A DNA stretch of 64,000 bases from Antitrichia curtipendula. Lineage: Eukaryota > Streptophyta > Bryopsida > Hypnales > Leucodontaceae. Under the pieces are notes generated by a model. That model had not been told where the DNA came from, ran no database searches, and saw only the letters and a list, made by a program, of their open reading frames with translations. The first letter of the stretch is position 1, and the number at the start of each line of letters is the position of its first letter. The position numbers were made by a program, and so were the translations under genes. The DNA lies in assembly GCA_951230915.1 (NCBI GenBank), contig OX579638.1, forward strand, positions 3,738,696 to 3,802,695. Reading direction: 5' to 3'. Shown here piece after piece: positions 19,495 to 62,166 of the stretch.

Positions 19495-19495
<1 letters not shown>

Positions 19496-24601: not shown

Positions 24602-24605
24602 TTAA

Positions 24606-33052: not shown

Positions 33053-33265
33053 CAGGGTTGTCCCCGTCACGTCCTGTCCGTCTGTCAGGATTCAACCCCG
33101 GCGTCCGTCAGGATGAAATCTGGACAAGAACCGTTGACAAAGGATGAAAACTATGGAAATGGATGGAAGTTCATCTTGGACGGCCGAGCTGGACGGCCGA
33201 CCTTCCGTCGAAGGGCCCCGCTGGACGGCCGAGCTAGACGGGCGATGGACGGGCGACCTTTAAAA
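33053..33265. repeat. Left terminal GC-rich block of the outer element
   Basis: About 210 bp rich in GGACGG/CCGTC and GACGGCCGA motifs in otherwise AT-rich DNA. It starts with the CAGGGTTGTC end. Motif-rich subterminal regions are where hAT transposases bind (family knowledge); binding here is inferred. Confidence 0.7.
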
Positions 33266-33269
33266 TTAA

Positions 33270-34213
33270 CCCCTAAAGGTTTTTGACTATGTTTTCACAA
33301 AAAACGCTCCCAAACTGCCATTTCTAATACAAGTACCAAATTTTGGAAAAAAAAATTTTGGACACATGTAACCATAGGATTCTTGTAGTAAACTAGTTTG
33401 AGAAGATGTGGAAAAAGTTTCAGAAATTTCCACCGTGTAGATTGCAAGATATTAGCATTTGAAGTGACAAAAATCCTTTTTTTGTCCCTGCGAAAAAACA
33501 GGCAGCTGCACTTCACATGGTCACATTTGTATGAAAAAATGTCCAAAATGGTGGTAACTCTTTGGATTCATTCTTCAAAGCAAGTTAGCTACATGCTTGA
33601 AAATTTTCAGATCATTTGGAATTGTACAACATATAGGAAAAAAATAGTAAGTAGAAAGAAGTAGAAAATGATTCAAAACACTAAATTGTTAAGGATTTAA
33701 TGATGGAATTGAAAAATGCCAATCCAAACGATTGTAATGTTGTAATAAAAAATCTACACCTTGTGTTCATATTTTTTTCCAAAAATATTGAAAATTGAGT
33801 TAAATAAAGGACTTCAAAGTTTATTTTAGAGTAGAGATTCTATAACTACCCGCAGACTACCCACAACTAAAATTCCTCATAACTTTCATCTCATAAATCA
33901 AAGTGGAATGATTTAAAGATTTCCTTGTGCACATAAATCTAGAGAACCAATTTCAAATTTTTATTTCTCTAAAAAATGATTTTTAAAGAAGTTTTTTTTG
34001 CTGCCCGGGCTGCCTGCCGAAAAATGAAAACTACATATCATACCATAACTTTTTAACCATGTGGTCAAAAGTTATGAAAATTATTGGGCCCTAAAGCTAC
34101 TCCTCGGGCACATCTTGTGTGAAAAGTTCAAAGAAAAAAAATAAAAATTCCATTCGTGGTGAGCTGCCCAAAAACGCTATGTTGTCAAAACACGATGTTT
34201 GGTCCTTTAGGGG
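33270..34213 (+). mobile_element. TTAA-family element, copy F
   Basis: A complete 944 bp copy with TTAA on both sides (33266-33269, 34214-34217), immediately inside the left terminal block of the outer element. It therefore landed after that element formed, or was carried along with it. Confidence 0.85.
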
Positions 34214-34217
34214 TTAA

Positions 34218-36081
34218 ATAAAATTAAAAAATATATATATAGTATATTTTGAAAAGCCATAAATTGATTGGGGTTATATATGTTAGGCAATTTAAACTCA
34301 TATTTTTTGGGTCAAAAACTTTTTAAATTTGACTTGTGAAAACTGAAAAGAGGATTGGAAGACTTCACATCATTTTTGTAGTTTTAACACCCTCATGTTC
34401 AAACATTATTATCTTTTACTGTATAAGTGATATTTTTGTGTTTTAGCAACCTATAAGATTTGTAACATGTCTTGTTTGAATTTATACGGTTACAATTTTT
34501 TTTTAATTGATACACTTAGTCACCTAATCAAAATGTTGACATTTTGTTCAATTTAGAGCAAATTCGTAGGAGCTCAAAACATGACTTGGGCATCTAGGAT
34601 TCTAGGGATTAAAGTTCGTTATTGGATTTCTAATTAGAGAAGTTGCTAAATTGATTTTACATTGACTATATGGCAAGAAATTCAAAAATATTAATCCATG
34701 TAGGCCCTATGCTAATTATTGCCAAAAAAAACTCCAAGTTGTCATTTCACCATGTTCATCTTGAAATGAAATGAAAAGAAAAAATTAGAATCTATTCAAT
34801 TTAAGACTTTCAAGTCAAGGATCGCCATTCATAAAGTCATCTATTTCAATTGATTTTCAAATAAATTTCATGTAGCGTGACCTTATCAAGTTAGCAATTG
34901 CAAGATATTAGACTTTGATCATTTGATTTCTATAATGCCATTTGAGAAAAAATGGAAAATGTTCAATACTTTAATTTGTAAACTTTGGATTTAAAAATAA
35001 ACATGAGGGAGTAGTCAATCAATAGTCCAACTAAAAAAAGATTAAAACTAATAGAACAAAAGTTACAAAACGTGAATTATTTTTTGGTTTAATTCTAAAG
35101 ACTTAAAGGAGATTTCATCAAATATGAAGCAATAAAATAATTTGTTACTTATTTTTTGCTTTGGTAAACAATTTCCATTGTTTTTATTTCTTAGCCCCTA
35201 AAGTAACATACTCTCATTGTTCTTGCTGCAAGGGACAAAATGGATTTTCGATAGGCTTCCATAATCTCATTTTTTACTGAAACTTTTGAAAACTTTTTTA
35301 TAAGAATGATAATATAGAATGATAGATAAACTTATGAGTTTATTCATAATACAATTTCTATTCCAATCGGTGCCTAAGAGCAAAGGGTATGCCACAATAA
35401 CCTCAAACAGAGGAGATCGGGACACCGGGCAGTCCAAGACTCCGGGTAGACAAAAAAATCCCCCCAAAAATGAAATACAAATTTGTATATTTTTGGCCAG
35501 TTGGATTATATTTTCTTTTAAATGGGAGGCTTTCATTCATCCCATTTGGATTAGGAATGGAAAAGTTATAGGTTTTTTGTGGAGCGGGCAATCCTAGCAA
35601 CTTCTTAAAATAAATTTGCTTCTTTCACTTCGAATGCTAATAACTTTCAATCCATACAGTCAAACATCACAAATTTTTTATCACGTCATCTAAGACAAGT
35701 GTAGAACAAGATCCTTTGGTTTGATTCAAAAAAAAATGGAAAATTTAATTCATAGGTGAACATAGCAAAAGTGTTGGTTTAGGGTGTTTTGGGCCAAAAA
35801 ATGGACTTTAGGGCTTCACCAAAAATAAAATAGAACACTCTTTTACCTACCATCTAAGCATACAAGCTTCTTCTATACTATTACAAAAAGGTCCAATAGA
35901 TTACAAAAATAGACAAAGGCGAAGCAACAATACACGAGGTGGAAAGAAAACGATAAATGTACATATTTTATAAATCCGTTGAAGTACATGGTAAACTAAT
36001 AAAGGCTTTACATAATTACATACGTTCACTTTGTACAACTTCCGGTATTTAATTCTATACATCTATCTAGTTATACACAAT
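34218..36081. other. AT-rich stretch without a supported gene
   Basis: No gene is seen. About 35193-35830 starts TTAGCCCCTAAAGTAACA and ends near GGACTTTAGGG, resembling another worn repeat of the TAACCCCTAAAG-ended kind. It shares ACTTTCAATC(C/T)AT(A/T)C-like text with 58070-58250. The last 100 bp before the RING gene stop is probably its 3' untranslated region. Confidence 0.45.
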
Positions 36082-38376: not shown

Positions 38377-38582
38377 TCTTGATACCTGGAAAATGACACA
38401 CACGATACTGTATGCGAATACAATGACAATTTGCTTTGCCTTCTATTGCGTGAAGGCAACTGAAATGTGGCAAAACAATGTCAAATGTATAACACTTCCC
38501 CTCAAATTGCAGTGCGAAGCTTTCTCAAGCTCGGACAGTGCAACTCAAAAGAGGAAGCAGGTGAACTATCAAAAAAAGTTCA

Positions 38583-39345: not shown

Positions 39346-39441
39346 AAATTTTATTTTTATTTTTTTGAAAATTGATTTTTCTTCGAAGTTTCGACAAAAT
39401 CACATCAAATAAAAATTTCATTTTCAAATTTTCACTATGTG

Positions 39442-42748: not shown

Positions 42749-44104
42749 ATGGCACGTCGCGATTTCTCGTAGAGAAAGGTTGATGATTGGTGGACAGGTG
42801 TTGGAGATGCACCGATTATGGACCCGGATGCGGAATCACCAGAGCCCGTTTCAGAGGCCGTAGCTGCAGAAGGGTCCGTAGCTGCTGTGGGAGGCGGAGA
42901 GTCTTCGAAGGGGAAAAAAAAACGAAGGAGGCACAAGGCTACAAATCCAGAGAAGTGGCCAAGTAAGGGTGCAACGCAAAAATTGCATGAAGTGGCGTTG
43001 GATTTTTTTGATCAGTATTCGATTTTGCAGTTGAACACAACATATGTCTCACGCGGATTATAGGGAGTGGATGTCATTAAACAAAAGTTCCACCACATGT
43101 TCTGGACAACAGTGAGTGCGGATGAGTGGCATGAAGACCGCACGAAAGAATGCTTCGATCATTGGTTGGAGTCACAAGTGCAAACGTGTATCTTCAACCT
43201 TGCCCAAGTTGCGGAAAAAATAAAAGGCTTTGAGAAGAGTGTAGTGCCCAGACAACAAGCATTGAATTTGTTGCACAAGAAGGTGTATTGGTGGCATGAA
43301 GCAGTGCGTGGATTGTCTTCAAACAACATCCGTTCCGCTCCGTGGTTTCAACGAAGTCAGAACTTGGCCTTTGGTCAACAAGCTACAGGAGGAGTGGTTT
43401 TCCTTGAAAGAGGAGTGGTGGTGGTTCCTTTGTCTAGCCATAGCAAACAAGGGGGGCATGGGAGGGTGCGCAAAGTATGTCTTCAAAATTCAAAACATAT
43501 TCCCAAGAATATGGAATTAGCTGGGAAGTCAGCCTTGCGCGTGGATGAATTGAAGAAGTCAAGGGAGAAGTTGTCCATCAAGGCATTGGTATGTCCATGC
43601 GAGCATCTAGGGGTCATCAAATTCTTTGCTATAAATGACATGACCATGGAGTGTTATTCGCAATGGTGGAATGGCGGTACTCTCGGCGCCATGTTTACCC
43701 TTGATGAGAAGAACCGAGATCCAGATGAAATTGGGGAATTGGCTTACGATGCAACTCCCCAAACAATGCAAGAAGCCAAACGACTCATGACATATAGACG
43801 CAAGCGCACTGAACTTGCGTGGGCGTTGATTTGCATTGTGGATGCAGTGCAACAGTGCTCTGTATTGCACAACGACATCACACCGGAGAACATTATGCTT
43901 CATTTTCCGAATGATGATGGAAGAACCGTGTGGATTGGTCTATGTGATTGGGGAATGGATAGCCGCATCAACGAAGAAACCCCTTCTCTTTACCAATTCA
44001 ATTGTCCAAGGAAGTTTCAGGCAACCCGAGCGCAACGTTGGTGGGTGGCTCCTGAGTTCATGTACTTGACTGGAGAGACAAGAACTTCATCATCTCCTAC
44101 TTGC
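42749..44104 (+). pseudogene. Protein-kinase-like gene 1, 5' part (outer element)
   Basis: One frame from the ATG at 42749, broken by TAG at 42770 and 43061 but with no frameshift. The N-terminus has a basic run (KGKKKRRRHK). A helical region of about 150 residues follows, then a divergent kinase domain: a glycine-rich loop GGHGRVRKV, an ELAGK segment that may hold the ATP-binding lysine, WWNGGTL near the hinge, a catalytic loop HNDITPEN (residue about 374, replacing HRD) and DWG (about 400, replacing DFG). RWWVAPEF corresponds to the activation-segment end. The gene is cut at 44104 by the inner hAT-type element; the rest is at 56754-57056, in frame once the insertion is discounted. Confidence 0.8.
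44097..44104 (+). other. Target-site duplication, left (inner element)
   Basis: CTACTTGC, matched by CTACTCGC at 56746-56753 (seven of eight bases). Confidence 0.8.
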
Positions 44105-44640
44105 CAGGGTTGATGAATTGGAACGTCCAGGGGCAAATCACGTCCAAAAACCGGACATCCGGACGTCCGGACGCAGCGTCCGCGGACGTTGTTGCGGACA
44201 CAGCGGACGTAGTGGCCACCGTCCAACGGACGCAGACCACCGGACGGGCGGACAGGAGGACGGCCGACGGACGGTTCGACTCGGATGATCCGACCGTCCG
44301 ATCAAGTGGACGGTCAGATCGTCCGATTGATCAGACGATCCGGCCACCCGATCAAGCGGGCGGTCAGACCGTCCGTTCGATTGGACGGTCCGCCCGCCTG
44401 ATCCAGCGGACAGTCCGTCCGTCCGCTCGATCGGACGGTCAGACCGTCCGTTCAAACCAGCGGATTGTCCGGCCGCTTGATCCAGCGGACGGTCAGACCG
44501 TCCGATCGAGCGGACAGTACGTTCGTCCGATCAATCGGACGACTGAGTCCGCTTCGGGAGGTTTGGGAGGGCGTCCGCCGCCGGACCTACTTTAGGGTTG
44601 GTGGCGGACGGGTATAAAGGCGGACGGCCCTTCCATTCTT
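44105..44640 (+). promoter_or_regulatory. Left terminal GTCCG/CGGAC block of the inner element and promoter of its RING gene
   Basis: From the CAGGGTTGA end, about 500 bp of CGGACG, GTCCGATC and CGGACGGTCAGACCGTCCG palindromes. It ends in TATAAA (44613-44618), 153 bp before the RING-gene ATG. The transposon terminus and gene promoter are thus the same sequence. Confidence 0.7.
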
Positions 44641-44770
44641 CCTCACTTCTTTTCTCCATTTAGAGGTGGAATCCGTGTCGGACGTTACATCCGTTGCTTC
44701 ATTGTGCTGGTTGCTCCTATACGGGTGGAGAGTGAGGTCAATTATTTTTTGATATCACTTGTCGTCAGCC

Positions 44771-47700
44771 ATGACAACGGAAGGTACAAGCAAGGGTACT
44801 GTAGCAATGACTTCAATAGGTGGCAAGAGTGGGAAGACAAAATCAAAGGGGACTGCCCACGAGCTTCACTGAGACATTTTAGATGATCCAAATATCAAAG
44901 CGGAGAGCGAATGGGAGAAGGAGGAAGAAACTTATTGGACCTCCAAAATCTGCAAAAGATATGTGAAAATGTATCACATCGACAAGTTGTGGCCTCGTGA
45001 GTTCCACATTATTCACACACGAGGGTTCTGTTGCAGACCATCGAATTGCAAGGATGGACATTTTGTCCATCAATCACTTGAGGTTTGGCGGGCCCTCTTC
45101 GGGGACAAATCAATGAGTAAGGGTCTCATAAACTACAGCGTGGCCTCTATGGTGTATGTTGAGCTCATATTGGCTCGGAAGGTGGACTGGAGCACATATC
45201 CAACAACAACTACGGCTCCGCTTTTGCTTAGAGTAGGACAAAAAGATATTCCGGATTTGTATGATCCAAAGGCAAGTCCAAGTGAGGCACCAAAATCACA
45301 GAAGCGACAAAAACATGCTTTAATGCAGGTTGAAAAAGAGATCATGGAGGGGGGAAATATTGGAGTACATTTGGATTCTACGAAGATTCCAACTACAATG
45401 TCAAATGCCACGGTGGAAGGTATTGACGGAGAGGTGTTTTCAACTCCTCGGGCGGATTGGATATGCACACGCAATTTTACATCCGTGGGTGAACAAAGTG
45501 GTGCTTCAAGCATGCGACCCGTGAAGGAGGAACCGGTGACCCCGTCTGCACCACAAAAACGTCGGGAAGAGGTTCGTCCCAAACAAATGACAAGGGCCAT
45601 TGCATCAATTGATAATATCATAGCGAGCGATGCTACGAATTTTATGACACAAGTACCTTGCAATCAAGACTTGCCAACTACACCGAGCCCCGTATTGAGT
45701 CCCGTATTGGGTCCCGTATCGAGCCCCGTACTGGGCACCCTATTGGGCCCCGTATCGAGCCCCGTATTGGGCCCCGTATCGAGCCCCGTGTTGGGCCCCG
45801 TATCAAGCCCTATGTTGGGCCCCGTATCGAGCCCAAGAGTTGAATGGCAGATGTTGCCAAAAAATGGAAAGCAACTCGATGGCATGGCGCAAAATGTGTC
45901 CATTGATGACAACCCATTGGATAAGAGCTATCCGCATTTGTCAACTCAAAATACGGCACAATTGGAGGATCTTTGTCATTTGCCAATGGTGAGTGAATTG
46001 GAAAGCTTGTTGGAAGCTTCTTATTTGTTTAGAGCACATCAACAAGACATCTCTCTTCAACCAAAGCAAGTAATCGAGACAAATGAGGCCGGTCCTAGTA
46101 ACCCCGCAAACAAGGCGGGCTTGACTGAAACCGCAAACGAGGCCGGACCGAGTAATCCCTTCGCCAAATATAGTGATGAATGGCCCAATTTTGTGATCAC
46201 CTCAAAAAGATTGTCGATTACAGCTAATTTTGTAGCTAGCATTGCCCCCAAACTTATGGAAGTTGCTCAGATATTCACCAAATCCGGGCCCGAGTTGGTG
46301 GAAGGTGCCTTGTCGTTTTGGGATTTCGTCACGTCTATGAAACCATTATTGGAGGAGCGGGTCAAAAATAATCGCAAGCTGCTCATTTTCGCTCAAGAGA
46401 ATGAGAAATACAAGGCCTTGAAGATAGAGCACGAGAAATTGAAAGAAAACCACAAGCAATTGAAGGATGCATTCAAAGGAGTGTGCGCTAATTATGAAAG
46501 ATTTGCGAACGCACAGGATTGCCGATATGACACTCTAATTTCTCAAAGGGAATTTATCGAGAAATTGGAGTACGAAATTGTAGCGCTCAAGCAAAAGAAT
46601 TTGAAAGACAGGGGATATATTCTTCCAAAGACCGGCGGAGCCGTGCATATAGAAGCGGTTGAGGAAAACAACCAAAAGGAGGTAATATCCGAAACCGCCA
46701 TGGATAATCCTCCTCCCACATTCCAAGACGCGTCCATGCAAACGGAAGACCACGAGTTTGAAGAGGTGAAGCATGAACTAGAATTGGTAACTCAACAAAA
46801 CGTTTATTTGGATGCACAATATCAGAAAATGATGCAAGTAGTGGAGCTAGATAAATGCTTGTCAAAGAGCAGTTCCAACACTCATTGGTTGACGTGGGTT
46901 CAAAAACTACAAGACAAACCGTCTGTAGTAACCCGAGCAATGAAGGGGCTTCTCAAATTAGCCATGAAGTCGAAGGAGCAATGCGATGCCATTTCCTCTG
47001 ACCTCCTATCTATTAGAAGGATGTTTGAGGTACATCATTGGGGTTCAATTAACGTCACATATTGGGGGGACATGTCGGCAATGTTTGAGCGATTGAATGA
47101 CGCGCAGAAAATTGCGTCAAAGTCCATAAATTGGACCTTCGAAGTAGAAGAAGGTTGGGCCCCTTACAACACGCATTCAGCGCACATTAAAGAGGCAGAC
47201 AAGATAGTAGTGCATGGTGAAAGTTCAAATACGGAACTATTGGAGGGTAAATGCAGCCTTTGTCTAAATCATTTTGGTCCCGAGGGCGCCTTAATCATGG
47301 GCCAATGTCGTCACACTTACCATATCACGTGCATGGTGAAATCATCTCTTGTTCGTTCGGTTTGTCCCGAGTGTCGGTCTCCTTTGAGCCCTAGGTTTTA
47401 CGAAATGGTTGGGCACGAGGAGAGCATGCCCCCTAGCCACGAACACAATCGATGGACCCTTCCACTTGACCAAAAGCCATTTCTATTCCAAAATTACATT
47501 CATTGGGGGCGACCTCTAATTTGGAATGCACAAAAACTCATGCATGATGTTTGTGAGAACTACAATGACGAATTGGATGACTTTGACTGGATGACGCGCA
47601 ATAGAGAGGTGGAGTTGCGGGCCAGGGGTATTGAAGACTTGGAAGCTCGAGAATTGTTTTGTCGTAGCATGGGGGGACACTGGAGCATCTCACATCAAAA

Positions 47701-48307: not shown

Positions 48308-48649
48308 TGTTTGTATTAGGGGATTAACCAATGAAATTTGTTTTGTACTTATTTGAATCTCATGAGGATTCAATATTAGTAATGCACAACACTCATGGTA
48401 TGTCATGAGTTGCTTTTAATTAATGTATAAATATTTATGCAATACAAATATGTTTGGATTTGTTTTTTCATAATGGTAAATTTTGCCTTCTTTATTTGTC
48501 AAATATGTTTCTTTTGCGTACCTATTGCAGAAGATCATACCTATTGTACATTTGTACAAAATCATTTCAAGTTATTGTTATGTTATCTTCTATAACCCCA
48601 TGCCTACAAATCACCCATTTTCATTTGCACATACATTTCTATTCGCGTA

Positions 48650-48953
48650 ATCCACTTGTCCGCCTGTCTGCACACTTCAAACATCTTACCGAAATTGTAA
48701 GAATCGCCTGTCCGCCCGACAGATTTTAGGTCGGCCCGTCCGCGGTCTGCCGTCCGCCGTCCGCCCGTTCGCTGAATCGACGGTCCAGATTCCCGTCCGC
48801 CGACCGCCCATCTGCTCATCCGATGGCCCAGATTTTTGTCCGCCCGTCCGCTGATCCGACGACTTCCGTCCGCCGTCCGCTGTCTGCCCGTCCGATGTTC
48901 ATACGGACCAGATTCCCATCCGCTGTCCGCCCGTCCGCTGTTCGGATGGACCA
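48650..48953. repeat. GTCCGCC-rich tandem block next to the assembly gap
   Basis: GTCCGCCCGTCCGC units interspersed with CCAGATTCCC. It is the same motif class as the inner element's other blocks, but no gene is visible beside it. It runs into the N gap, so its length and any gene or element end beyond it are hidden. Confidence 0.65.
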
Positions 48954-49153
48954 NNNNNNNNNNNNNNNNNNNNNNNNNNNNNNNNNNNNNNNNNNNNNNN
49001 NNNNNNNNNNNNNNNNNNNNNNNNNNNNNNNNNNNNNNNNNNNNNNNNNNNNNNNNNNNNNNNNNNNNNNNNNNNNNNNNNNNNNNNNNNNNNNNNNNNN
49101 NNNNNNNNNNNNNNNNNNNNNNNNNNNNNNNNNNNNNNNNNNNNNNNNNNNNN
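48954..49153. other. Assembly gap (200 N)
   Basis: Exactly 200 N, the size often used for gaps of unknown length. It lies at the edge of a GC-rich tandem repeat, which probably caused the break. Confidence 0.97.
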
Positions 49154-51349
49154 TTTTTTTCTCATTTAGTGCAGCATAGGATTCCTGAAATGGCCAGGTC
49201 ATCTCCAAAGAGTGTGCCTTCATGACAACAAGCATCCAATGTGAATACTTCAAAGACATTGAACTCCTCATGGCACCGACATCAAACTTCATTCTTCAAT
49301 GTGCACATCATATTTTTAGGTGCAATCTTGAAATTAAACATCTCAAGGATATTTTGAAATGACCATCTTAAAAGATCAAAATGAAATGCTACCTATAGTT
49401 CTAAATTTTTTTTTCTAAATTTTTGATGATAGATCGTAGATTTAATTATATTAAAAAATTTATTTGAATTTTAATCAGATATTACTATATATTGTAAGAC
49501 ATCTCAATTTTAAAATAATTGTTTTTATGAAGAAATTTGTCGAAGTAAACCAAATCCGACTTAATGTCATGAAACTAAAAACAATTGCTATGTACTTATA
49601 TAATACTATTGCATCAAAGTCACGATCTTCTAAGATATTTGTATGCAAAGTTCTAATATAGGATTTAGAATTTAGGATTTAGGGTTCATGTCATTCATAT
49701 AAATGTTGTCCAAATTAGAAGTGTATTTTGAAAATGGATGTGTTATAATATTTTGATGTAATATTAAAAAATCATTTTGGTCATGATAGTATAGATTGAT
49801 ACCTAATTAGTAATTACCTACTTATAAGAAATTGCCCCATTCAATGTCAAATAATGTTGTCAAAAATCATTTGGAGTTATATAACTTATATATTGCGGAC
49901 TTGCGGTCTTGCGGAGTGCGGATCATGAAGTTAGAAAAAGCATATAGAGTTGTCTTATGTCTCTAGAATTCAAAGTTCGTTATTCAAAATTGATATCAAA
50001 GAATATTAATTGTCTATTAGAATATTTTTTTCATTGGGATTAAGAATTCTTCAATTCTTCCAAAAGTTATTAGCGTATTATTTTTCATTTAATAGTGCAT
50101 CAATTTCTACTTCACAAATTTTAAAAAATGAATGTATAGTTCTTTTGAGTTTAACCTCTAATTCTCTAAAGTCCCATTGTCCCATCGGGGGACAAAATGG
50201 ATGTAAGATTTTTAGGCAGGCTCCTATGGCCTCAATATTTTTTGTAAATTTCTGAGTTTTTTTGGTATCTTTTAGAATAAATAACTTGAAGTATTCATTT
50301 TTGAATTGAATTCTAAGAGTTAAAATCAAAAAAAAAAATTCATGAGGTCTACATTCCTTGCTAGAATAATCTCAGAGTGGAAATTAGTATATTTCAATTC
50401 TATCTTACTATCTTAGAGCTATTAATGATTTAATTTTTCCTTTGATCTTGAATCTACTTCTACCTAACAATTTTTTAATGAGTGAAAACTAAGTGTTTCT
50501 TTTTTAAAATCTTTTTTTTAGATTCTCAACTCAATTGTTTATCATGTAAAATTAGACATTCACCATCACTAGAGTAGCCTTTTTTAGTTAAAAAGGTTCA
50601 TCGCAAAAAAATGTAGTTTTGCAAGGTGCCAAGGTGCCTAAAAAGTAGGGGTTAAACATTTCACATTTAATCATTTATTCATAACTCAATTGCCTAAATT
50701 TTGGCTAAAATGCACAAGGTGAAAGACGTACGTGAATATTCCTCAAAGGGTTGAATGACCAAACATCCCAATTTAGAAAAGCTAGAGAAGTAAACATTTA
50801 ATTTTTAAATTCCATGCACAATTGCACATTGGTGAATTCTTTGAGGTATAAATTCATTCAACTAATGTGGGACAATGGTGTTGATAAAGTTACATAAAAA
50901 GTCTATTGTTGAATTTGTTTAACAAAATATATTCACATAAGAAATTAAAAAATTGACTTCAAAGCTTTATTTGCGAACTTGTGCGTGCTATGAATTCAAG
51001 AAACACCTAAACCCAATCAAGAATCCTCAAGTTAAGTTCTTAATTGAAGATGGTCCATATATTTCTTGAGGAGCTTAATTTGCATTTGTTTTCATATTTT
51101 TAATTAGTTATGATTTCTTACATTTGTAACTTTAGAGTATAATTTAGGATTTAGGTTTTAGGGTATAGGGTTTAGGGTATAGGGTTTAGGATGTAGGACT
51201 TAGTGTATAAAATTGAAGATCATTGCATTAAAAAAACGCTGGAGTTCTATTTAATGATTCAAGTTCTTTAAGTAAGAAAGTGAATGTCGATGAGATTTTT
51301 GTCTTTCCCATCCTTGTCATTATTTGCTGGTCGAGGTCGTTTTAGGAGT
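49154..51349. other. AT-rich stretch without a supported gene
   Basis: No gene is supported. About 50150 has CTCTAAAGTCCCATTGTCCC, matching the repeat starts at about 13150 and 18560, so a relative of that repeat probably runs to about 50660. A telomere-like run (TTTAGGGTATAGGGTTTAGG type) lies at 51143-51195. Confidence 0.45.
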
Positions 51350-51790
51350 CAGATGATGCAGCCGTCCGCCTGGTCGGACGACCTCGAAAAATCTCTCAAT
51401 TTGATCTCCACTTGAGAGGGGCTGTCCGATCAGGCAGATTGCCCAGGTCGGACAGCCCTGGGCGGACGGCAGCCGTCCGATACATTAGGGCCGTCCGATG
51501 AGTCGGACGGGCTGCGTCCGCCTGATCGGACGGTCCTTACAATGCGGACGACTGTTCGTCCGTGTCGTCTCGTCCGCCCGATCAGGCGGACGGGCGAGGC
51601 GTCCGCCTTCGATTTTAGGGTCGGACGGCCCAGAGCAGACGGCGGCCGTCCGATGTGTTGGACGGGTGGCGTCCGCCTGATCGGACGGTCTTGACGAGGC
51701 GGACGATGATCTGTCCGCCACCTCGGGTCCATCCGATCAGGCGGACGGTCGAGGCGTCCGCCTTGCATAAAAGAGTTGGACGGCCCATCC
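51350..51790 (+). promoter_or_regulatory. GTCCG/CGGAC block and TATA-like box of kinase-like gene 2
   Basis: GTCCGCCTGATCGGACGG units repeat from about 51360 to 51760, followed by GCATAAAAG (51765-51773). The gene's ATG is about 240 bp further on. Confidence 0.65.
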
Positions 51791-52011
51791 GCTCCTCACT
51801 TTTATTTTCCCCCTTGTGTCATGTAAGAGAGAGCGGAGAGCTTGGTGGTTTATCCTCCATCGGCTCCTTTCTAAGGGAAGATAAGAGTGTGATTTCTAGG
51901 GGATACTTGTTGCTTTTTTTTTCTACATTTTGTGTATGATCATTTGGCAAATCGTATATTGCCTTGTGGATTACAAATTGCAAGTGCACTTCTAAACGTG
52001 ATTTTATCACG

Positions 52012-53496
52012 ATGCCGAGATCAAAGAAGGCTGCGAAGGACAAACGAGTGAAGCCGGACAGTGAGGCGAGGATGGACGCTCCTTCTCTCGCTTGCAAAGC
52101 ATTTCTCATTGAGTGCATTGTCAATTTTTATGAGTCGGAAACCACTGCGTCGTTGTATACCAAATATGCGAGGTATGAAGACGAGTGCCCAGCTAAATTC
52201 AAGGGAGATATGGCACAAAAGTTCACGGATGCTTTAAACGTACCCTATTGGATTCATGAAATGGAGAGTAAGGGCTTTCAACAATTTTTGAAGAACAAGG
52301 TCCATGATGCATTGTGGAATGCAAAGGTGATCTTAGAGAAGTACGGGAAGCAACACCGCGTAGGTGATGGCGCTTTTGAACAGGTCATTTTGAGGGCAGA
52401 CTTGTTTGTTCGCCAGTGCGCCCCTTTTGCAAAGAATCGAAATAGGCGAGGTTCAATGGGTTGGTGGAATAGTGATGAGGGAGTTGTGGAGTTGCAACGT
52501 GGGTGACGACATCTCTTAGCGCTTCCGAAAACAGCAAGGGTGATTCCACAAGATGATCAAATCCTGAGGGGTGGATACGCAACAATTCGGAGGGTCCGAA
52601 TTGAAGGATGTCGTGAGATACCCACATTTTGGGAGTTTGCAGCGAAGGTATCTCATCAACAACGCATACGACCTCCGCTCGCAAGGTTGGAACACCAAAA
52701 CGAGTCAATGGCAGTGAGAATTCCACATGATGGAGTTATCCGGTTTTCTGCTGTTCATGCAACGCAAAACGAAGGGTACTCGTATTGGTGGAATGGCGGA
52801 ACATTGAAGCAAATGTTAAAATTGGATAAGGAATATCCCGATAACATTGGCATTCGGTTGGCTTATTCTCAACCGACCCCGGAAGAGGTGACCAAAGCTT
52901 TTTTTCTTGGTCGTTGGAGGAAGAAGTGCACAGAGCTTGCATGGGCATTGGTGCACCTCATGAATGCAGTGCACAGCGCTGGACATTTGCACAATGATCT
53001 TTCACTAGACAACATTATGTTTCACTTTCCCAATGATGAGTCACGTGTTTACATTGGAGTTTGCGATTGGGGCATGACTACCTTACGTAATGAACCAATG
53101 AAGTCCTTGTACACGTTCACCTCTCAGAGTGAGCGGACTGAGACCTTGAAAAAGAGGTGGTGGGTGGACCCTTCTATTGTATACTTGCATAGAAGAGATG
53201 CGGATGTGTCAATGATACCGGATTTATCACGTAAATCAGAGGAATATGCGGTTGGTCGAATAGCTCAAGCCATCAACAATGGTTGCATGTCGGCGGACTA
53301 TGTGAGCTTACATCGGGAAAATGAAGGACATACAAGATTTAGCCATGAGGATTTGGCAAAGATTTTTCACCTTTACTTGGAGCGCCTTTGTGATTTGGTG
53401 ATTGATTCTCGCGGTAGCTTGTCCGAAATCATCCATCGATTTACCAATAATTACAACTGGCCTATTCCAGATGAACACTTCCGCCACTCATATTAG
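52012..53496 (+). pseudogene. Protein-kinase-like gene 2 (inner element), one in-frame TGA
   Basis: A single frame from the ATG at 52012 (MPRSKKAAKDKR, basic) to 53496, interrupted only by TGA at 52504-52506 (codon 165). The N-terminal 160 residues align with the helical part of gene 1. The kinase-like domain follows: GGYATIRRV as glycine loop, FAAKV with the likely ATP-binding Lys (about 212), WWNGGTL, HNDLSLDN (about 327), DWG (about 352), RWWVDPS, and a full C-lobe to NWPIPDEHF. Lys, the catalytic Asp and Asn, and the Asp of DWG are all present, so catalysis is not excluded. No intron signal explains the TGA: homology with gene 1 runs across it. Confidence 0.75.
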
Positions 53497-53843
53497 TGTC
53501 TATGGTGTTAGTGAACGACATAGAAGTGATAGAACTATAGAAGTATTAGGTAAATGTAGAGGCGAGTACATAAATTTGCATGATTGTTTGCAAACTATCT
53601 AGTATATATATGCACCATCAATGTATCCCAATATATGTGCACCCTTATAATTCATATAAAATTTTGAAATGTTTGTGTGTTTTGAAACTTCCAATGTCCA
53701 ATGTCTACCATCTATTTATGCATTCATCATATGTTTTGCTTGAAATCCTTGGATGAGAAGTGCAATGCAACAATTATTGTTGATGGATGTTAGCTTGGTA
53801 TGGTTGGGTTCAAAATTGTATAATCAATGTTGAACACATATAA

Positions 53844-54785
53844 CCCCTAAAAGACCAAAGTGATTTTTTTGGCAACATAGCGATTTTGGGCAACTCACTA
53901 CAAATGGAATTTATATTTTTTTTCTTTGAAATTTCCATACAACACGTGCCCGAGGAGTAGCTTTAAAGCCCAACAATTTTCATACATTTAGACTACATGA
54001 TTAAAAAGTTATTGCATGATATGTCATTTTCAGTCCTTGGCGGGCAGCACGGGCAGCGAAAAAAACTTCTTCCTAAATCACTTTTTAAGAAAATAAAAAT
54101 TTGAAATTGGTTCTTTAGATTTATATGTACATGGGAAGCTTTGAATCATTCCATTTAGATCTATGAGTCAAAAGTTATGAGGATTCTTAGTGTAAGGGTA
54201 GTTATGGAATTTCAACTCTAAAATAAACTTTGAAGACTTGAAGTCTTTTATTTAACTCAATTTTCAATATTTTTGAAAAAAAATAAAAACATTGGGTGTA
54301 GATTGTTTATTACAACATTACAACCGTTGGATTGGCATTTTTCAATTCCATAAATTAATTCTTCACAATTTAGTGTTTTGAATCATTCTCTACCTCTTCC
54401 TACTTACTATTTTTTTCCTATATGTTCTACAATTCCAAATGATCTGAAAATTTTCAAGCATGTAGCCAACTTGCCTTCAAGAATAAATCCAAAGAGTAAC
54501 CACCATTTTGGACATTTTTTTATACAAATGTGACCTTGTGAAGGGCAGCTGCCCGTTTTTTTGCAGGGACAAAAAAAGGATTTTTGTCAATTCAAACACT
54601 ATTATCTTGCAATCCACATGGTGGAAAATTCTGAAATTTTTTCCACATCTTCTTAAACAAGTTTACTACAAGATCCTATGGTTACAAGTGTCCAAAAATG
54701 TTTTATTTCTAAAATTTGACACTAGTATTAGAAATGGCAGTTTTGGAGCGTTTTTGGTGAAAACATAGTCAAAAACATTTAGGGG
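53844..54785 (-). mobile_element. TTAA-family element, copy G
   Basis: A complete 942 bp copy in reverse orientation inside the inner element. The flanks are ATAA on both sides (53840-53843, 54786-54789) rather than TTAA, which shows that a 4-bp direct duplication is real and that the target need not be strictly TTAA. Confidence 0.8.
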
Positions 54786-55059
54786 ATAATGATAATAGAA
54801 TTTCATCGTACGCAGATATTTTTTATATTGAAAAGCAATACAGTTGATACTTGAACGATACCGCTATGATGATACCAAGTACTAACGTCCAAATACATTT
54901 TAATACAATATATTTACATCAAAGTAATTTAGTACGTAAATGCTATTCGCCGAGATGCCGATATTTTTGTACTATGATTGCCACACTCCATAATCAAATG
55001 GCAAAAGATTCCAAGGCCCACTCAATTGTGAGACAACGACTAAAATAGCTCTACCTACT

Positions 55060-56156
55060 TTACTCGGAATCTGAATGGATGTCATCTCTACGTTTCGGTG
55101 GTGTGGAACCGGATCCATAAGTGCCAAGATATGGTCCTCCGCCCCAAGTGCATCCATAGTCACTTGGCGTAGCTCCTTGATTGGGATTTCCATAGTAAAG
55201 ACCTCCAAAAGTTGGAGGAGGAACTACATCACGGTGCTGAGACCTTCCTTGCCTTGGTTCGACATGACAAGAGCCTGTGTGACGCTCATATGAACCACCC
55301 GTAGTAGATCCGGACAAGTATTGGGAGCCTCCTTGGCTAGATCCAAAATCATGTGTGGTTCCATGGCTTCTTTCTGGGTTGTAATAAGTACCTCGGGGGT
55401 CGTTAGCGTAGTGTAAGACCCTTTGACCATCTTGTGAACCAGATGCAGTACGATCATGTTGGTAGGACCTGTCATGCCCATGTTGTTGACCCCGATCCTC
55501 CATGCTTCTACGCATAGCTTCTTGCATTTGTTGATTGAATTCGATGTCTTCCCGAGCTTCTTGACGCTCATGTCCCACTGTAAATGTTACGGGTGCTGGA
55601 TTGTCTTCTACATCATCGTCGTCCGACCATTCATCCTCAGCATCCGGCAATACAACCGGCGGAAATCCAAACTGCCCTTGATTGGACCACATTCGCATAC
55701 AATCGCTCGGTTGAGTCCAACTCGTATAAATAACAGCGTCAGTGCGCTTCATATTGTCAACATTTTTCCCGTAAATTGTGCGCCAGTCTACATCTTTGTG
55801 GAGTACAATCTTTGCCCAAACCATGACCATGTTGGAATAATTCATAACATTTGGTTTGGATCAGGCAGCTCAGCGCACCGCGTTACTTCCTCGTATCGGT
55901 GCACAAAGTGTTGACTCTCGCACGTGAAAATTTGTCCTTCCCAGCGTCGAACTTGTTTGTCTGCTCTTTCTTGTGACCACATTTTGGAGAGGTGCGTCAT
56001 TTTGACGTACTTTTTGCACATTGTGCAGTCCCAAACCTTCTTGGGCTCTTCTTCCCATCCAAGTTCAGCTACACACATTGGATTTGCCCAATCTCCCCAG
56101 TTCATGTCCTGGGATTTGCCTTTGTTACTGGACCTTGAACTACTATTGCGAGGCAT
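55060..56156 (-). pseudogene. Third KDVDW-module gene (inner element), with frame change
   Basis: Starts at the ATG at 56156 (MPRNSSSRSSNKGK). A KDVDW-type module follows: CTMCKKYVKMTHL, then SQHFVHRYEEV. The frame ends in TGA at 55842, overlapping by ATGA the start of a second frame that continues the same module (NYSNMVMVW, then HKDVDW). Spacing against the inner RING gene shows a one-base shift inside the module rather than an intron. The remainder (to 55060) is acidic, then Ser/Gly/Tyr/Gln-rich (GGLYYGNPNQG, YLGTYGSGS) with no RING finger. It is either a frameshifted pseudogene or translated by coupled or shifted reading. Confidence 0.65.
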
Positions 56157-56419
56157 GATAACCTTGATTAAAATGAAATGATTTGATGACAAAGTTCACA
56201 TGAATTTTTAGGAGAACTGAACAAAATGTTTGACACTTGCCAATGAAACGAGGTGAAGTTGTTAACAAGGCCTTCAAAACCAAGTAATCACCAAAATAAT
56301 TTGGTGCAATTTAGTATCCGAGCACAATCGTTCACGCACCAAAACGAAAGGGGCGCGCAGAGCCACTGAGAGGCACTGGATCACCCACTCCGCAAGGGAA
56401 ACGATTGTAAGGAATGAGC

Positions 56420-56745
56420 CATCCGCCGCGTTATTTATGGCGTTCGAAGGCGGACCAGGCAATGCGGACGCCTACGTGCGAATCGGACGGGCACATCGTG
56501 CGGACGGGATCGCACGGACGTCCCGTCCGCACGTGCCCGTCCGCAAGATCCGACCGCGCGATCTCGTCCGCGAGCCCGACGCCTTGTCCGCCTGAGGGCC
56601 CGTCCGCGAGATCCCATCCGCGGGACTGTCCGCGAGCCTCCCGACCGCACGGACGGCCCGTCCAGGGATGTCAAAAGACGTCCGGGGGTCAGCGTCCACG
56701 TCTGCCGAACGTGGACGCGGACGTCCGGACGTCCTGTCAACCCTG
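56420..56745 (-). promoter_or_regulatory. Right terminal GTCCG block of the inner element and promoter of its third gene
   Basis: GTCCGCA, CGTGCGGACGG and CCCGTCCGC motifs fill the block. The gene-proximal end has ATAAATAA (56431-56438, minus strand) and the outer end is the CAGGGTTGA terminus. This mirrors the element's left end. Confidence 0.65.
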
Positions 56746-56753
56746 CTACTCGC
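56746..56753 (+). other. Target-site duplication, right (inner element)
   Basis: CTACTCGC; see 44097-44104. Confidence 0.8.
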
Positions 56754-57056
56754 AGGGTTAAGCCACCATGTGTTAGTATACACACGAACGGATACTCCAT
56801 AGGGAAATTGGCTATGAAGGTATGGAAAAAAGATCGCGGAAATGTAGAGATGATTCCAGACCATACGGCATTTGGTACGTTTCAAACCATGTTGGGAGAA
56901 TTGTGCAAGGTGGAGCCACTACAACGACGCTCGGTGATATATGCTGTTGAACATCTAAGTGGTGCTCCAACGTTTTGGACACCACCCGCGGATTGCTACC
57001 GCGAGGCCCGCAAAGAACAAGACCTTCAAGAAGAGCAGGCACGCAATGAAGATTAG
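56754..57056 (+). pseudogene. Protein-kinase-like gene 1, 3' part
   Basis: In frame with 42749-44104 once the inner element and one target copy are discounted. It supplies the missing C-lobe: GYSIGKLAMKV aligns with EYAVGRIAQAI of gene 2, and ELCKVEPLQRRSVIYAVEHL with ERLCDLVIDSRGSLSEIIHR. It ends at TAG (57054-57056) after a Gln/Glu-rich tail. On its own it has no promoter and would look like an orphan ORF. Confidence 0.75.
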
Positions 57057-58384: not shown

Positions 58385-61300
58385 TCAACGTCTTCCATGC
58401 CTAAGAATGCGCACAGAAGTATTTGCATTTGCTTCTTGTACTATTGGTTCATTACCACCAATTTCTTCGAGTAGACCTTGTCGAGGCACCGGCCCCCTGT
58501 AATCACTATCTCCTGGAACCTCACCATCTTCACCTATAGTACCACCGATGGATTCACCATCATCATTGGATGGTGCACTATCACTTTCGCTGGAGGCCTC
58601 AGAATTGCGGTTTCGTTGTGGTCGAGCTATAGAAGACAACGTCCGAAGAGGTCGTTGGCCCATTGCGTCCATAATGCCATCTGTATTGGGTCCTCCTGTT
58701 TGAACTTCTCTTAAAAATGGTTGGGAATCTGCTTCTTCCTTCCTCAGCCTTCTACGCGTTCTATTACTCACACGTTCACTAGTAGTACCTTGTGGTCATG
58801 GACGCTTCCCTCGATTATTGGCATGTATAGGTGGCCGCAATGAAGTCGTATTTCTAGTCGCACGCTGTGACACCATACCAGCCAATCGTGTACCTATCGA
58901 CAAAGTTGGTTCGTGTGAACGAACTTCGGAACTAGATGGCCTTGATGAACTTTGGATTTGTAGATTTTCCAATATTGGCATTTGCCGTTGTGCAACTGAG
59001 ACTCGATTTGGAGGGGGCATATCTAATTCTCCACTATGAGGGGACCCTTCTCTATGGGTGGTCCTCATGGGCAATGACAGTGGTACTACTACGTCTTCTT
59101 CACGTCCTCTTTGAATGTCAACCCCATCTTTTTCTATTGTGGCATCAACTTGTACATCCATAGGGTCTGAACTTAGTGGTCTCGGTGCCACAACGTCCTT
59201 ATTTGTATTGCCCCGACTTGGCCCAGCATTCCACGTTTGTGGCATTCGTGGTGGACTTCCTTGATGTCCCTCGTAGTCACTGTCGTTACTATCCCCCTCT
59301 TCAAAGTCAAATACGGATGCATCAATTAGAGGACGCACTCCTCCCGCCCCACGGAATCTATCAAACGGTGGCTCATCGTCGTCATTGGAACTATCATCTG
59401 AATCGTCATCATTGGGATCAGAGAAAACCGAACCACGGTCTAGACCATCAGAGTCCTCTGTCGTGGAATCCTCTGACATCATGTTTTCAGTATACCACCT
59501 TGTCGGATTTGCTGCAGCCCTTTCTCTAAAAGTCTTGGAATTGGTATAAATGTAAACCAATTCCTCAGCACGCTCTGATGTCAATCTATTGCATGATTTG
59601 TTGTGGACAAACGAATACATGCTCCAATTGCGTTTACAGGACGATGCAGAACACACTTGCACAAGGATCTTTCTGGCAATCGGTGCAAGTGTACGAGCAC
59701 CGGCTCCAAGAAGGTCCCACCATTCGTGAGGCTGCAAATTCAAGGTGTTTACATCAGGAAGTCCACCGAAAATGCCTCGCCGATCTCTAAATGATTGGTA
59801 CTCAGACAAAGCTGAAGCAAATGCTTGATCTCCAACAGTTAATTTGCGCAAAACTCTCAATATGGCTTCTCTTGCCTCATCATCATCCATTAGCAAGACT
59901 TCGTCAAGTAAAAAGGGATTCAATAGAGCCCCAGCGTAATGCAAATCTGTCCTGAGCATGTCCCAGCGCTTGTAGAAATCATCGGTGGCGGAAATTGCAT
60001 ATCTCCGCTCTAATGAAAATGGTGGATCCTCCAAAGATAAAACATGCTTTTCCACCTTTTTCATTACAAGCCATGCCTTGTCTAAGCACGGGTGCTTGCC
60101 ATCAAACTCTCGAAGAGCAATCAACACGGGCTTCACTATGTGCACAAAGTTCAAACATTTCCTCCAAAATTCATCCGTTCGCACATATCGTCGCACATCG
60201 TTAGCTTTTCATTGCTTTTGATTGGATGCCAACTTCCGCGTGTACTTATTCCACTGCGGATCGTGGACTGTCGATTCTACTGCTTCCCTCACCTCCACCA
60301 AACGTTCGATCATGAGGAACATGGTTGCAAAGCGTGTTTGAACGGGATTTTTCAAAACGTGATTAGGAGAATGTCGTCGAAAGATTGCAAGTGGCATGTG
60401 ATGCGTTCGAATGTATTTCACAATTGACTTGGCTTTCTTGACCATACTTGTAATCCAATCTTATTTTTCCCAATCTTCAAGTAGAAGGTCAAGTGCATGT
60501 GCTGAACACCCTTGAAAATATATGTATGGAAATCTACGAAGTAACAGAGCGCCAGCGGCCAACATGTTTGCTGCATTGTCTGTACAAACTTGTACCACGT
60601 TCTGTGTCCCTACCTCGTCAATGTAATCACCCATGCAATTAGCCACGTAAGTAGCATCTTTGCATTTGCATGTTGTGTCTATCGATCGAAGAAATACCTC
60701 TCCACTTGTACATGCCAACATGACATTCATCAATGGTCGATGTGTAACGTTGTCCCATCCATCAGAGCATATTGTAACGCCATACTTGTGGATTGGTGCC
60801 CTCGTCTTCTCTACTACAATTGCTACCACTTCGTCTTTTGTAGATTTTATGAGCTTTGTACGAAGTGCATGGTACGCTGGAGGTTTGTAGCCAACTCTCG
60901 ATTTCGATGTTGATTTCACTGCATCCAGAAAAGCAGGATGCCTCACTACATTGAATGGTATATTGGCTTCGTAGAAAAACTTAGCCCACTTCTTGTCTAG
61001 TACTTGCTTGTTTGATGCGTTCATTCTTTCTTGTACAGACAGTTGCCTCATCGATCGATTGTGGGTCAAACTAGGGTTGGGCGCCTCCGATGATCGTACT
61101 TGAGAGCTTTGCCCCCCAGTGTTTTCTCCTCCATCGTTTGCCGAGATTGAAGCATCAGGTTGTTGCTCACCACGTACTACACTTGGTAGTATCGTTGATG
61201 GTGATGTCACTTCCACGTCGCGTCCAGTTCCATGCGAAGTGTCCGTAGGTATATGTCCTCCACAATTAAAAAACATTACCTTCACGGCTGCATTGACTTT

Positions 61301-61465
61301 AGTGCACGCTCTTACTCCAAGGAGGGTGTCATTTCATCTGTATCCCAAATGGAAAAGCAACCGATCCTTTCGATAGCTTAGCAAAGCTTCGCAAAACTTG
61401 CAAACAACTTTTCCATCTGGCCGTAGTGTGTACCAAGGTTCCCATTGTGATCTTCTTCTACCCAT
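58385..61465 (-). pseudogene. hAT transposase of the outer element, four in-frame stops
   Basis: A single minus-strand frame of about 1,027 codons from the ATG at 61465 (MGRRRSQW). A BED zinc finger has CKFC at 22-25 and FH at about 39. A DUF659-type domain follows (SDGWDNVTHRPLMNVM; TDNAANM; CSAHALDLLLED). The hAT dimerisation region has EWWDLLG, LAPIARKIL and CSASSCKRNWS. The tail is long, acidic and Ser-rich. Stops interrupt the frame at 61334 (TGA), 60461 (TAA), 60209 (TGA) and 58796 (TGA) with no frameshift; homology to hAT proteins crosses at least the first three. The last could be the original stop, but similar acidic sequence continues. It would be inactive unless the stops are bypassed. 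Confidence 0.85.
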
Positions 61466-61494
61466 TTCTCTTATCTGTCCTCCTCTACCTGCCC

Positions 61495-61517
61495 CTGCAC
61501 CAAAAAAAAGATTAGTA
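61495..61517 (-). promoter_or_regulatory. Probable 3' splice site of a 5'UTR intron in the hAT gene
   Basis: On the minus strand: TACTAAT branch-like heptamer (61517-61511), a T-run, then GGTGCAG ending at 61495, 30 bp before the ATG at 61465. The 5' splice site was not located. Confidence 0.4.
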
Positions 61518-61682
61518 TTATGTTTGAAATGTGATGTGGAAACAACACTTGTTGCTCTCACAACAAGTGCCACCACAACACACTCTTCTTGGACTTCGCT
61601 CTACCGCAATGGTTGTACTCCAACCAAGTCAGGAAAGATAAAATTAGCAAGGGAAAGTAATTTTGAATAGGCAGAAGTCCTT

Positions 61683-61688
61683 AATATA
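61683..61688 (-). promoter_or_regulatory. TATA-like box of the hAT gene
   Basis: GTGTATATTAAG on the minus strand, between a telomere-like run (61704-61728) and the ATG. Same layout as in the other element promoters. Confidence 0.45.
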
Positions 61689-61703
61689 CACCTTGAAGCC
61701 CTC

Positions 61704-61728
61704 CCTAAAACCCTAAACCCTAAACCCA
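61704..61728 (-). repeat. Telomere-type motif (telo-box) in the hAT promoter
   Basis: CCCTAAAACCCTAAACCCTA on the plus strand. Short AAACCCTAA boxes are known plant promoter motifs; here it stands directly upstream of the TATA-like box. Confidence 0.6.
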
Positions 61729-61734
61729 GCTAGA

Positions 61735-62158
61735 CGGAGTGACGGCTGATGGGGTGGACCCTAAACCCGCAGCCTCGCCAACGAAACCGTCCAAGTGGCG
61801 ACTGTCCCGTCCTGCGATATTCCGGTCCAGGGGACGGGACGGTTTCCCGTCCAGAGGACGGAGAGGCCGTCCAAGGGACGCCCTGGAGACAAGAATTATG
61901 TCCAGAGACGGGCTCTCCGTCCAGGGGACGGCTTACCGTCCAACGGACGGCCTCTTCGTCCACAGACGGGCTCTCCGTCTAAGAGACAGATGTCCATTTG
62001 GCGACGGATTGACTGTCTAGGAGATGGCCCGACGCTATCGCAGAATGGACAGACTTCATCTGCGCTCCGGATGGTCCCGTCAGTATCGGCGACGGGCTGT
62101 GACCCGTCATGACATCCGGACGTGAAAAGCCCATGTCACGTCCGGATAGACAACCCTG
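61735..62158 (-). promoter_or_regulatory. Right terminal CCGTC/GACGG block of the outer element and promoter of the hAT gene
   Basis: CCGTCCAGGGGACGG, CCGTCCAAGGGACG and similar inverted pairs fill the block, which ends with the terminus (minus strand CAGGGTTGTC). CACGTCCGGAT is repeated near the very end (62106-62150). Confidence 0.7.
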
Positions 62159-62166
62159 TTGTGTAC
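62159..62166 (+). other. Target-site duplication, right (outer giant element)
   Basis: TTGTGTAC, identical to 33045-33052. Confidence 0.88.

What the first reader, a model, noticed from the sequence alone, without database searches (positions are those of the whole stretch)
33053..62158. A 29 kb hAT-type element carrying its own transposase plus kinase-like and RING cargo genes
Three independent signs agree: matching termini CAGGGTTGTC on opposite strands, a perfect 8-bp duplication TTGTGTAC, and an interrupted target (a 922 bp TTAA-family copy) whose halves lie at 32237-33052 and 62167-62272. Typical hAT elements are a few kb with one gene. This one holds a hAT gene, a coiled-coil/RING gene and a kinase-like gene, all with the same promoter type. 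I know of no named plant element with this gene set.
Basis: partly seen in the sequence, partly recalled or inferred. Interest (0 to 1): 0.95.

Follow-up and report, generated by a model that had tools for sequence, protein, structure and literature searches.

The report
Giant multi-gene hAT transposons, one nested
In a plant genome (probably a moss) a very large jumping gene carries, besides the enzyme that moves it, a protein-kinase gene and a ubiquitin-ligase-like gene, and a second, related giant element with the same kinds of genes has jumped into it; because the genes recur together at many places in the genome, they look like working parts of these elements and not chance passengers.

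Summary
The termini, the perfect 8-bp duplication and the interrupted repeat are real: joined flanks restore a full-length ~940-bp repeat. But 29 kb is not one element. Three other copies show a 16.1-16.4 kb unit (window 33053-44104 plus 56754-62158) with RING/coiled-coil, kinase and hAT transposase genes. Inside its kinase gene sits a second hAT-type element (44105-56745; 7 of 8 bp duplicated) with its own RING and kinase genes; a sister copy of that inner family spans the window's 200-N gap and has a hAT gene there. So two hAT families carry the same three gene types in different order, and a third kinase group lies (one locus read) between genes with the same N-terminal domain. Kinase motifs are kept down to 26% identity, RING ligands to about 50%. 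Named relatives: the moss Ceratodon purpureus and a lichen-fungus MAG. Against: 3 of 7 left-right pairs lack a duplication, and the RING gene shows little constraint among copies (dN/dS 0.81; kinase 0.43, hAT exon 0.44). Best reading: giant multi-gene hAT elements whose kinase and RING proteins are element genes, perhaps helpers against host silencing; that function is inferred. New variant of a known kind.

The parts
33053..62158 (.). Outer hAT-type element as it stands in the window (29,106 bp, of which 12,641 bp are a nested element)
   Evidence: Ends and duplication, empty site, three other copies
33045..33052 (+). Left target-site duplication TTGTGTAC
62159..62166 (+). Right target-site duplication TTGTGTAC
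33053..33062 (+). Left terminal inverted repeat CAGGGTTGTC
   Evidence: boundary in the genome
62149..62158 (-). Right terminal inverted repeat (GACAACCCTG on +)
   Evidence: boundary in the genome
36082..38442 (-). Outer RING-H2/coiled-coil gene, open frame of 786 codons read stop to stop
43064..44104 (+). Outer kinase gene, 5' part, cut by the inner element
56754..57056 (+). Outer kinase gene, 3' part
60461..61333 (-). Outer hAT transposase, part with DUF659
   Evidence: PF04937 1.4e-35
58796..60208 (-). Outer hAT transposase, part with the dimerisation region; ends in a stop where copies C and D stay open
   Evidence: PF05699 4e-06
58385..58795 (-). Tail of the outer transposase frame
44105..56745 (.). 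Inner hAT-type element of a second family, 12,641 bp as assembled, ends CAGGGTTGAT / GTCAACCCTG
   Evidence: left boundary
44097..44104 (+). Left duplication of the inner element, CTACTTGC
56746..56753 (+). Right duplication of the inner element, CTACTCGC (7 of 8)
44873..48307 (+). Inner RING gene, open frame of 1144 codons read stop to stop
48954..49153 (.). 200-N assembly gap; in sister copy L078 this place holds a hAT transposase gene
51940..53496 (+). Inner kinase gene, interrupted by one stop at 52504-52506
55060..56195 (-). Inner fourth gene in two frames (55842-56195 and 55060-55860), with the N-terminal domain shared with the RING proteins
32233..33052 (.). Left part of the interrupted ~940-bp TTAA-ended repeat
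62167..62276 (.). Right part of the interrupted repeat
33266..34217 (+). Copy of the same repeat inside the outer element, also present at that place in copies A and C
53841..54790 (-). Copy of the same repeat inside the inner element

Best explanation
A giant multi-gene hAT transposon of about 16.3 kb (transposase, RING-H2/coiled-coil gene, kinase gene) inserted into a ~940-bp repeat and later received a second giant hAT element of a related family inside its kinase gene. The transposase is taken to act on the ends and the CGTCC/GGACG-rich blocks and to move the element by cut-and-paste with 8-bp duplications (inferred from the hAT superfamily). The RING and kinase genes are constitutive parts of this hAT lineage. 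Most likely they are helpers: the kinase phosphorylates, and the RING protein ubiquitinates, a host or element protein in a way that favours expression or transposition, for example by weakening silencing. Shown: anatomy, nesting, copy families, gene linkage, conserved catalytic motifs. Inferred: transposition mechanism and helper function. The stated confidence is for the anatomy and for element-gene status; for the helper function alone I put about 0.4.
For: Ends, duplication and empty site. Three further copies of 16.1-16.4 kb, main blocks 92-95% identical, short GC-rich repeat blocks 77-91%. Duplications match at 7 or 8 of 8 bases in 4 of 7 outer left-right pairs checked (chance of 7 or more 4e-4 per pair). 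Inner family: 27 of 40 RING loci have the inner kinase downstream on the same strand, other side or strand 5 of 40; a hAT gene lies between the two in L078 (DUF659 2e-23, hAT dimerisation 2.4e-10), 36-45% identical to the outer one. Third kinase group in the same genome, 84 candidates scored of 1422, flanked in the one locus read (L086) by two genes with the shared N-terminal domain. Kinase: G235, K260, H374, N375, N381, D400, G402, P435 invariant in 18 sequences, E278 and D376 nearly so. RING: C551, C554, C569, H571, H574, C577, C588, C591 invariant in 4 sequences. The 50 listed Foldseek matches of the P0004 model are kinase entries.
Against: 3 of 7 outer pairs lack matching duplications (C, D, C8:10.25; 1-2 of 8 bases); the last pair is 34 kb apart and may not be one element. 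Linkage is incomplete in the capped lists: 18 of 40 left ends have the hAT exon, 6 of 40 a right end, 27 of 116 kinase hits have both RING before and hAT after; of 220 clusters 109 show one feature only. Mean dN/dS among 10 RING copies is 0.81 (N-terminal domain 0.43, RING region 0.56, coil 0.90, C-terminal part 0.81), kinase 0.43 (9 copies), hAT DUF659 exon 0.44 (23), hAT C-terminal part 0.81 (4); shared and singleton changes do not differ. RING and kinase Pfam scores lie under the curated cut-offs (23.2 against 27.3; 30.6 against 31.7). The kinase model superposes on solved kinases with large rmsd, 6.9-13.7. The window's outer kinase, outer transposase and inner kinase are broken. No transposase was seen in the 8.5 kb read of the third family. 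No expression, biochemical or population data.
Confidence: 0.85

Rival explanations
1. One 29-kb element carries all genes, two RING and two kinase genes included.
For: Perfect outer ends and duplication around 29,106 bp.
Against: 3 of 3 other complete copies lack 44105-56745; that stretch has its own hAT ends and 7-of-8 duplication; the inner genes form families of their own, only 11 of 122 inner kinase hits being within 40 kb of an outer kinase hit; 40 of 40 inner left-end hits start at base 1 or 2.
Confidence: 0.02
2. The RING and kinase genes are passengers: host genes captured long ago, copied with the element but of no use to it.
For: RING dN/dS 0.81 among copies, no difference between shared and singleton changes; stops in many copies; known capture by plant transposons (PMC13317346, passage seen).
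Against: Two families with different gene order keep the same gene types and a third kinase group lies beside the same N-terminal domain; kinase catalytic residues are kept at 26-35% identity; kinase dN/dS 0.43 is like that of the hAT exon, 0.44; many frames remain open.
Confidence: 0.25
3. The kinase and RING proteins are element genes but act on the element's own transposase (switching it on, off or degrading it), not on host silencing.
For: Same elements, similar upstream repeat blocks for all genes; no host target is known from these data.
Against: Nothing here separates it from a host target.
Confidence: 0.25
4. Assembly error joined unrelated pieces.
For: An N gap in the inner element and another in a sister copy.
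Against: Outer and inner junctions fall exactly on element ends and duplications; other copies confirm the outer unit and a second inner copy confirms the inner right part at 95-96%.
Confidence: 0.03

Closest known systems
hAT superfamily (Ac, Tam3, hobo)
   Same: Short TIR beginning CAGGG, 8-bp duplications, transposase with DUF659 and hAT dimerisation region.
   Different: Plant hAT elements are typically under 5 kb (PMC10741241, passages) and, as I recall, have one gene; these are about 16 kb with three or four genes. A 2018 survey reported no hAT sequence found in Physcomitrella (PMC6027215, passages).
Kaonashi (KIU) genes in non-TIR MULEs
   Same: A DNA transposon group with a conserved non-transposase gene of a ubiquitin-like pathway, one of three coding genes (PMC13317346, one passage).
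   Different: Different superfamily; Ulp1 domain instead of RING plus kinase.
ToxhAT / ToxTA of fungal wheat pathogens
   Same: A 14-kb gene-carrying class II element once called hAT (PMC12506042, passages).
   Different: Single copy, TA duplication, renamed ToxTA as Tc1/mariner-like; the present elements have hAT transposase genes and 8-bp duplications.
Starship giant transposons of fungi
   Same: Large, gene-rich elements (PMC11623301 listing; PMC12506042 passages).
   Different: Moved by a tyrosine recombinase with DUF3435; no such domain in the 10 window ORFs scanned.
VANDAL and MuDR multi-gene MULEs (recalled)
   Same: A further gene beside the transposase that helps the element, including anti-silencing VANC.
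   Different: Other superfamily, other proteins. Recalled, no paper read.

Membership tests
hAT superfamily | Short terminal inverted repeats (5-27 bp) | tested here: met
   10 bp outer; 9 of 10 bp inner
hAT superfamily | 8-bp target-site duplication | tested here: met
   8 of 8 in the window and copy A, 7 of 8 in two outer copies and in the inner element; 3 of 7 outer pairs without a match
hAT superfamily | Transposase with hAT C-terminal dimerisation region | tested here: met
   PF05699 4e-06 outer, 2.4e-10 inner family in L078
hAT superfamily | Catalytic acidic residues of the RNase H-like fold | not tested
   Not mapped; only DUF659 and dimerisation matches
hAT superfamily | Cut-and-paste transposition | not testable with these tools
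   Only an empty site rebuilt from a repeat
Protein kinase | G loop, catalytic Lys, HxD, DxG and APE-like motifs | tested here: met
   Invariant or nearly so in 18 sequences, with HND for HRD and mostly DWG for DFG
Protein kinase | Score above the Pfam cut-off | tested here: inconclusive
   30.6 against 31.7, E 2.9e-07
RING-H2 ubiquitin ligase | C3H2C3 zinc ligands | tested here: met
   All eight invariant in 4 sequences
RING-H2 ubiquitin ligase | Score above the Pfam cut-off | tested here: inconclusive
   23.2 against 27.3 in the window protein; P0003 27.3
RING-H2 ubiquitin ligase | Ubiquitin-ligase activity | not testable with these tools
   Needs an assay
Starship | Tyrosine recombinase with DUF3435 | tested here: not met
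   No such match among the 10 ORFs scanned
Kaonashi MULE | Ulp1 domain and MULE transposase | tested here: not met
   No such match among the 10 ORFs scanned

The most novel reading that the evidence does not exclude
Mosses harbour an undescribed lineage of giant hAT transposons in which a kinase plus RING ubiquitin-ligase pair (the RING proteins bearing a shared, undescribed N-terminal domain) is a core, co-inherited module that modifies host proteins to defeat silencing, and that has diversified into at least three families and hundreds of loci in one genome.
Probability: 0.35. Interest if true: 0.9.

Novelty: new variant of a known kind. Interest (0 to 1): 0.7.

Why it matters
hAT elements are textbook small transposons. 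A hAT lineage of about 16-kb units with a recurring kinase and RING gene would widen what a cut-and-paste element can be, and would give a natural system to ask whether plant DNA transposons encode signalling enzymes that act on their host. It also matters for annotation: such proteins can be listed as host genes (the Ceratodon purpureus relative P0058 is a 'hypothetical protein'; whether it lies in an element was not tested).

Tried and rejected
A single 29-kb element: rejected. Inner element as non-autonomous without a transposase: first suspected, since no hAT ORF was noticed in 44105-56745; dropped for the family when L078 showed a hAT gene at the place of the N gap; whether the window copy holds it is unknown. 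Inner copy on C7 (L076/L077): matches the window from 49154 on, with its own N gap near that point, so uninformative for the left part. Structure of the outer RING protein: mean pLDDT 39.9, no fold conclusion. Kinase relatives in viral contigs: 48 pattern matches, none confirmed. PDB by sequence: weak kinase hits only, best E 0.021. Selection on the master lineage by shared against singleton changes: no difference; the 11 RING and kinase stretches had been chosen for open frames, which biases against stops. Literature: 10 searches listed no paper on giant multi-gene hAT elements in plants or mosses; the library lacks most subscription journals, and several searches were narrow. The right-end search of the inner family did not complete, so a duplication around a second inner copy was not tested. 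No scan of genome contigs was made.
Full report
What was checked. The termini, the 8-bp duplication and the interrupted repeat are as described. The two flanks, joined with one duplication copy, align over nearly their whole length with five other copies of a ~940-bp repeat in the window, at 70.7-75.8% identity. This is a clean rebuilt empty site.

The family. The left end has 40 scored hits in the 400-Mb genome (483 first-look candidates) and the right end 40 (572 candidates), the window included; 37 of 39 other left hits begin within two bases of the element start and 39 of 39 other right hits stop within four bases of its end. I fetched three further copies: A on C1 (16,408 bp by its ends), C on C5 (16,099 bp) and D on C8 (16,280 bp), measured by hand. 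They are colinear with the window, main blocks 92-95%, short GC-rich blocks 77-91%, but jump from the equivalent of window 44101-44111 to 56743.

The nested element. At that place the window reads CTACTTGC | CAGGGTTGATGA ... CTGTCAACCCTG | CTACTCGC: a second hAT-type element of 12,641 bp as assembled, with a duplication that agrees at 7 of 8 bases. Its left end is a true boundary: of 40 scored hits (window included), 39 start at base 1 and one at base 2. A second copy ends at the same right boundary. Its RING gene (40 candidates scored of 2563) and its kinase gene (122 of 1280) form a family of their own: the kinase lies downstream of the RING gene in 27 of 40 cases, and 11 of 122 inner kinase hits lie within 40 kb of an outer kinase hit. 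Without the insert and one duplication copy the window element is 16,457 bp.

The gap. The inner element has a 200-N gap (48954-49153). In 24 of the 27 linked sister pairs the RING-kinase distance is 6.7-13.6 kb, against 7.6 kb in the window. L078, 4.9 kb from one sister locus, matches the window on both sides of the gap (88.7% and 98.7%) and contains a hAT transposase gene between, 36-45% identical in its parts to the outer transposase. So the inner family also has RING, hAT and kinase genes, in the order RING(+), hAT(+), kinase(+), plus a fourth gene(-); the outer order is RING(-), kinase(+), hAT(-).

Linkage. With capped hit lists (57 RING, 116 kinase, 135 hAT, 40 left, 40 right), 42 of 57 RING hits have the kinase and 36 of 57 the hAT exon in element orientation within 40 kb; 78 of 116 kinase hits have the hAT exon, median 4,714 bp, interquartile range 4,581-4,750; the wrong orientation gave 5, 0 and 8. 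Less complete: 18 of 40 left ends have the hAT exon, 6 of 40 have a right end, and 27 of 116 kinase hits have both RING and hAT. The hits group into 220 clusters, of which 109 show one feature only (42 hAT, 29 left, 23 kinase, 9 RING, 6 right). Missing parts may come from the capped lists or from real loss; I cannot tell which.

A third group. A kinase of unnamed origin (P0017) finds a third kinase group in this genome, 84 candidates scored of 1422, at 51-70% identity. In the one locus read (L086, 8.5 kb) the kinase lies between two genes with the N-terminal domain that the outer RING, the inner RING and the inner fourth gene share. No transposase or hAT end was seen in that stretch, so that it is a hAT element is inference.

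The proteins. Kinase: Pkinase 2.9e-07, just under the cut-off; catalytic motifs kept in 18 sequences with HND and mostly DWG variants; a model of P0004 (mean pLDDT 70.6) gives kinase entries in the 50 listed PDB matches, TM-score by target 0.45-0.64 except two long targets at 0.17-0.21, rmsd 6.9-13.7. RING: eight zinc ligands invariant among 4 sequences. Relatives: 3 proteins for RING, 39 for the kinase and 56 with a profile, mostly from short contigs without an organism name. Two carry one: P0058 from the moss Ceratodon purpureus (26% to P0004), near the inner kinase in a tree printed without support values, and P0040 from a MAG of the lichen fungus Gyalolechia (30%), which may be a contaminant or may mean a wider range. 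The host is a plant by two peroxidase genes in the flank (PF00141; class III by my own reading of the sequence). That it is a moss is inference.

Selection. Among copies of the outer family mean dN/dS (Nei-Gojobori) is 0.81 for RING (10 copies), 0.43 for the kinase (9), 0.44 for the hAT DUF659 exon (23) and 0.81 for the hAT C-terminal part (4); within RING 0.43 for the N-terminal domain, 0.56 for the RING region, 0.90 for the coil and 0.81 for the C-terminal part. Shared and singleton changes do not differ. This neither shows nor excludes that the RING gene is needed. The stronger arguments for function are recurrence across families and kept catalytic residues.

Mechanism. I take it that the transposase acts on the ends and on the CGTCC/GGACG blocks. 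Such blocks lie at the ends and upstream of genes, so they could also bind a regulator, such as the N-domain proteins. The kinase and RING proteins would act together on a host silencing factor or on the transposase. None of this is shown.

State of this copy. The outer kinase gene is cut by the inner element, the outer transposase has a stop in its tail where copies C and D are open, and the inner kinase has a stop. The outer RING frame is open. This copy is probably not autonomous; loci with open frames exist elsewhere.

Duplications. Of seven outer left-right pairs, four match at 7 or 8 bases (window, A, C3:46.77, C5:23.8) and three do not (C, D, C8:10.25). Pairs without a match may be recombinants, old copies or wrong pairings.

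Literature. Plant hAT elements are described as typically under 5 kb with 5-27 bp TIRs and 8-bp duplications (PMC10741241, passages). A survey found no hAT sequence in Physcomitrella (PMC6027215, passages). A 2026 review of gene capture in plants names the Kaonashi genes in MULEs; a term search found no 'hAT' or 'kinase' in its main text (PMC13317346). The 14-kb ToxhAT was reclassified because of a TA duplication (PMC12506042, passages). My ten searches listed no giant multi-gene hAT in plants; that is not proof of absence.

Noticed in passing
window 9920-24606 and 29641-31763: Large inverted duplications around two peroxidase genes (15521-16540 + and 29859-30890 -): 14657-16785 against 31763-29641 at 83%, and 12218-14346 against 19557-17390 at 90% DNA identity.
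   Followed up: partly
window 3255-6866 (-): Retrotransposon gag protein with a zinc knuckle (PF03732 2.7e-12, PF00098 9.2e-06) and two neighbouring frames; retroelement-like, only observed.
   Followed up: partly
window 19896, 22653, 23651, 33266, 53841 and the split copy 32233/62276: A ~940-bp repeat with TTAA ends and no obvious gene, at least six copies in 64 kb; likely a non-autonomous element, and the target of the outer hAT.
   Followed up: partly
window 36082-38442 (-), 44873 (+), 55842-56195 (-); L086: A shared N-terminal domain of about 110 residues (conserved W, C, H, C, EV and VDW) without a Pfam match above cut-off; weak resemblance to zf-C3HC in the fourth inner gene (0.0027; alignment). 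Possibly a new zinc-binding domain.
   Followed up: partly
window 48954-49153 and L076 (C7:24453500-24463499): Two loci of the inner family both carry a 200-N gap beside GGACGG-rich repeats, so the assembly may break there repeatedly.
   Followed up: no
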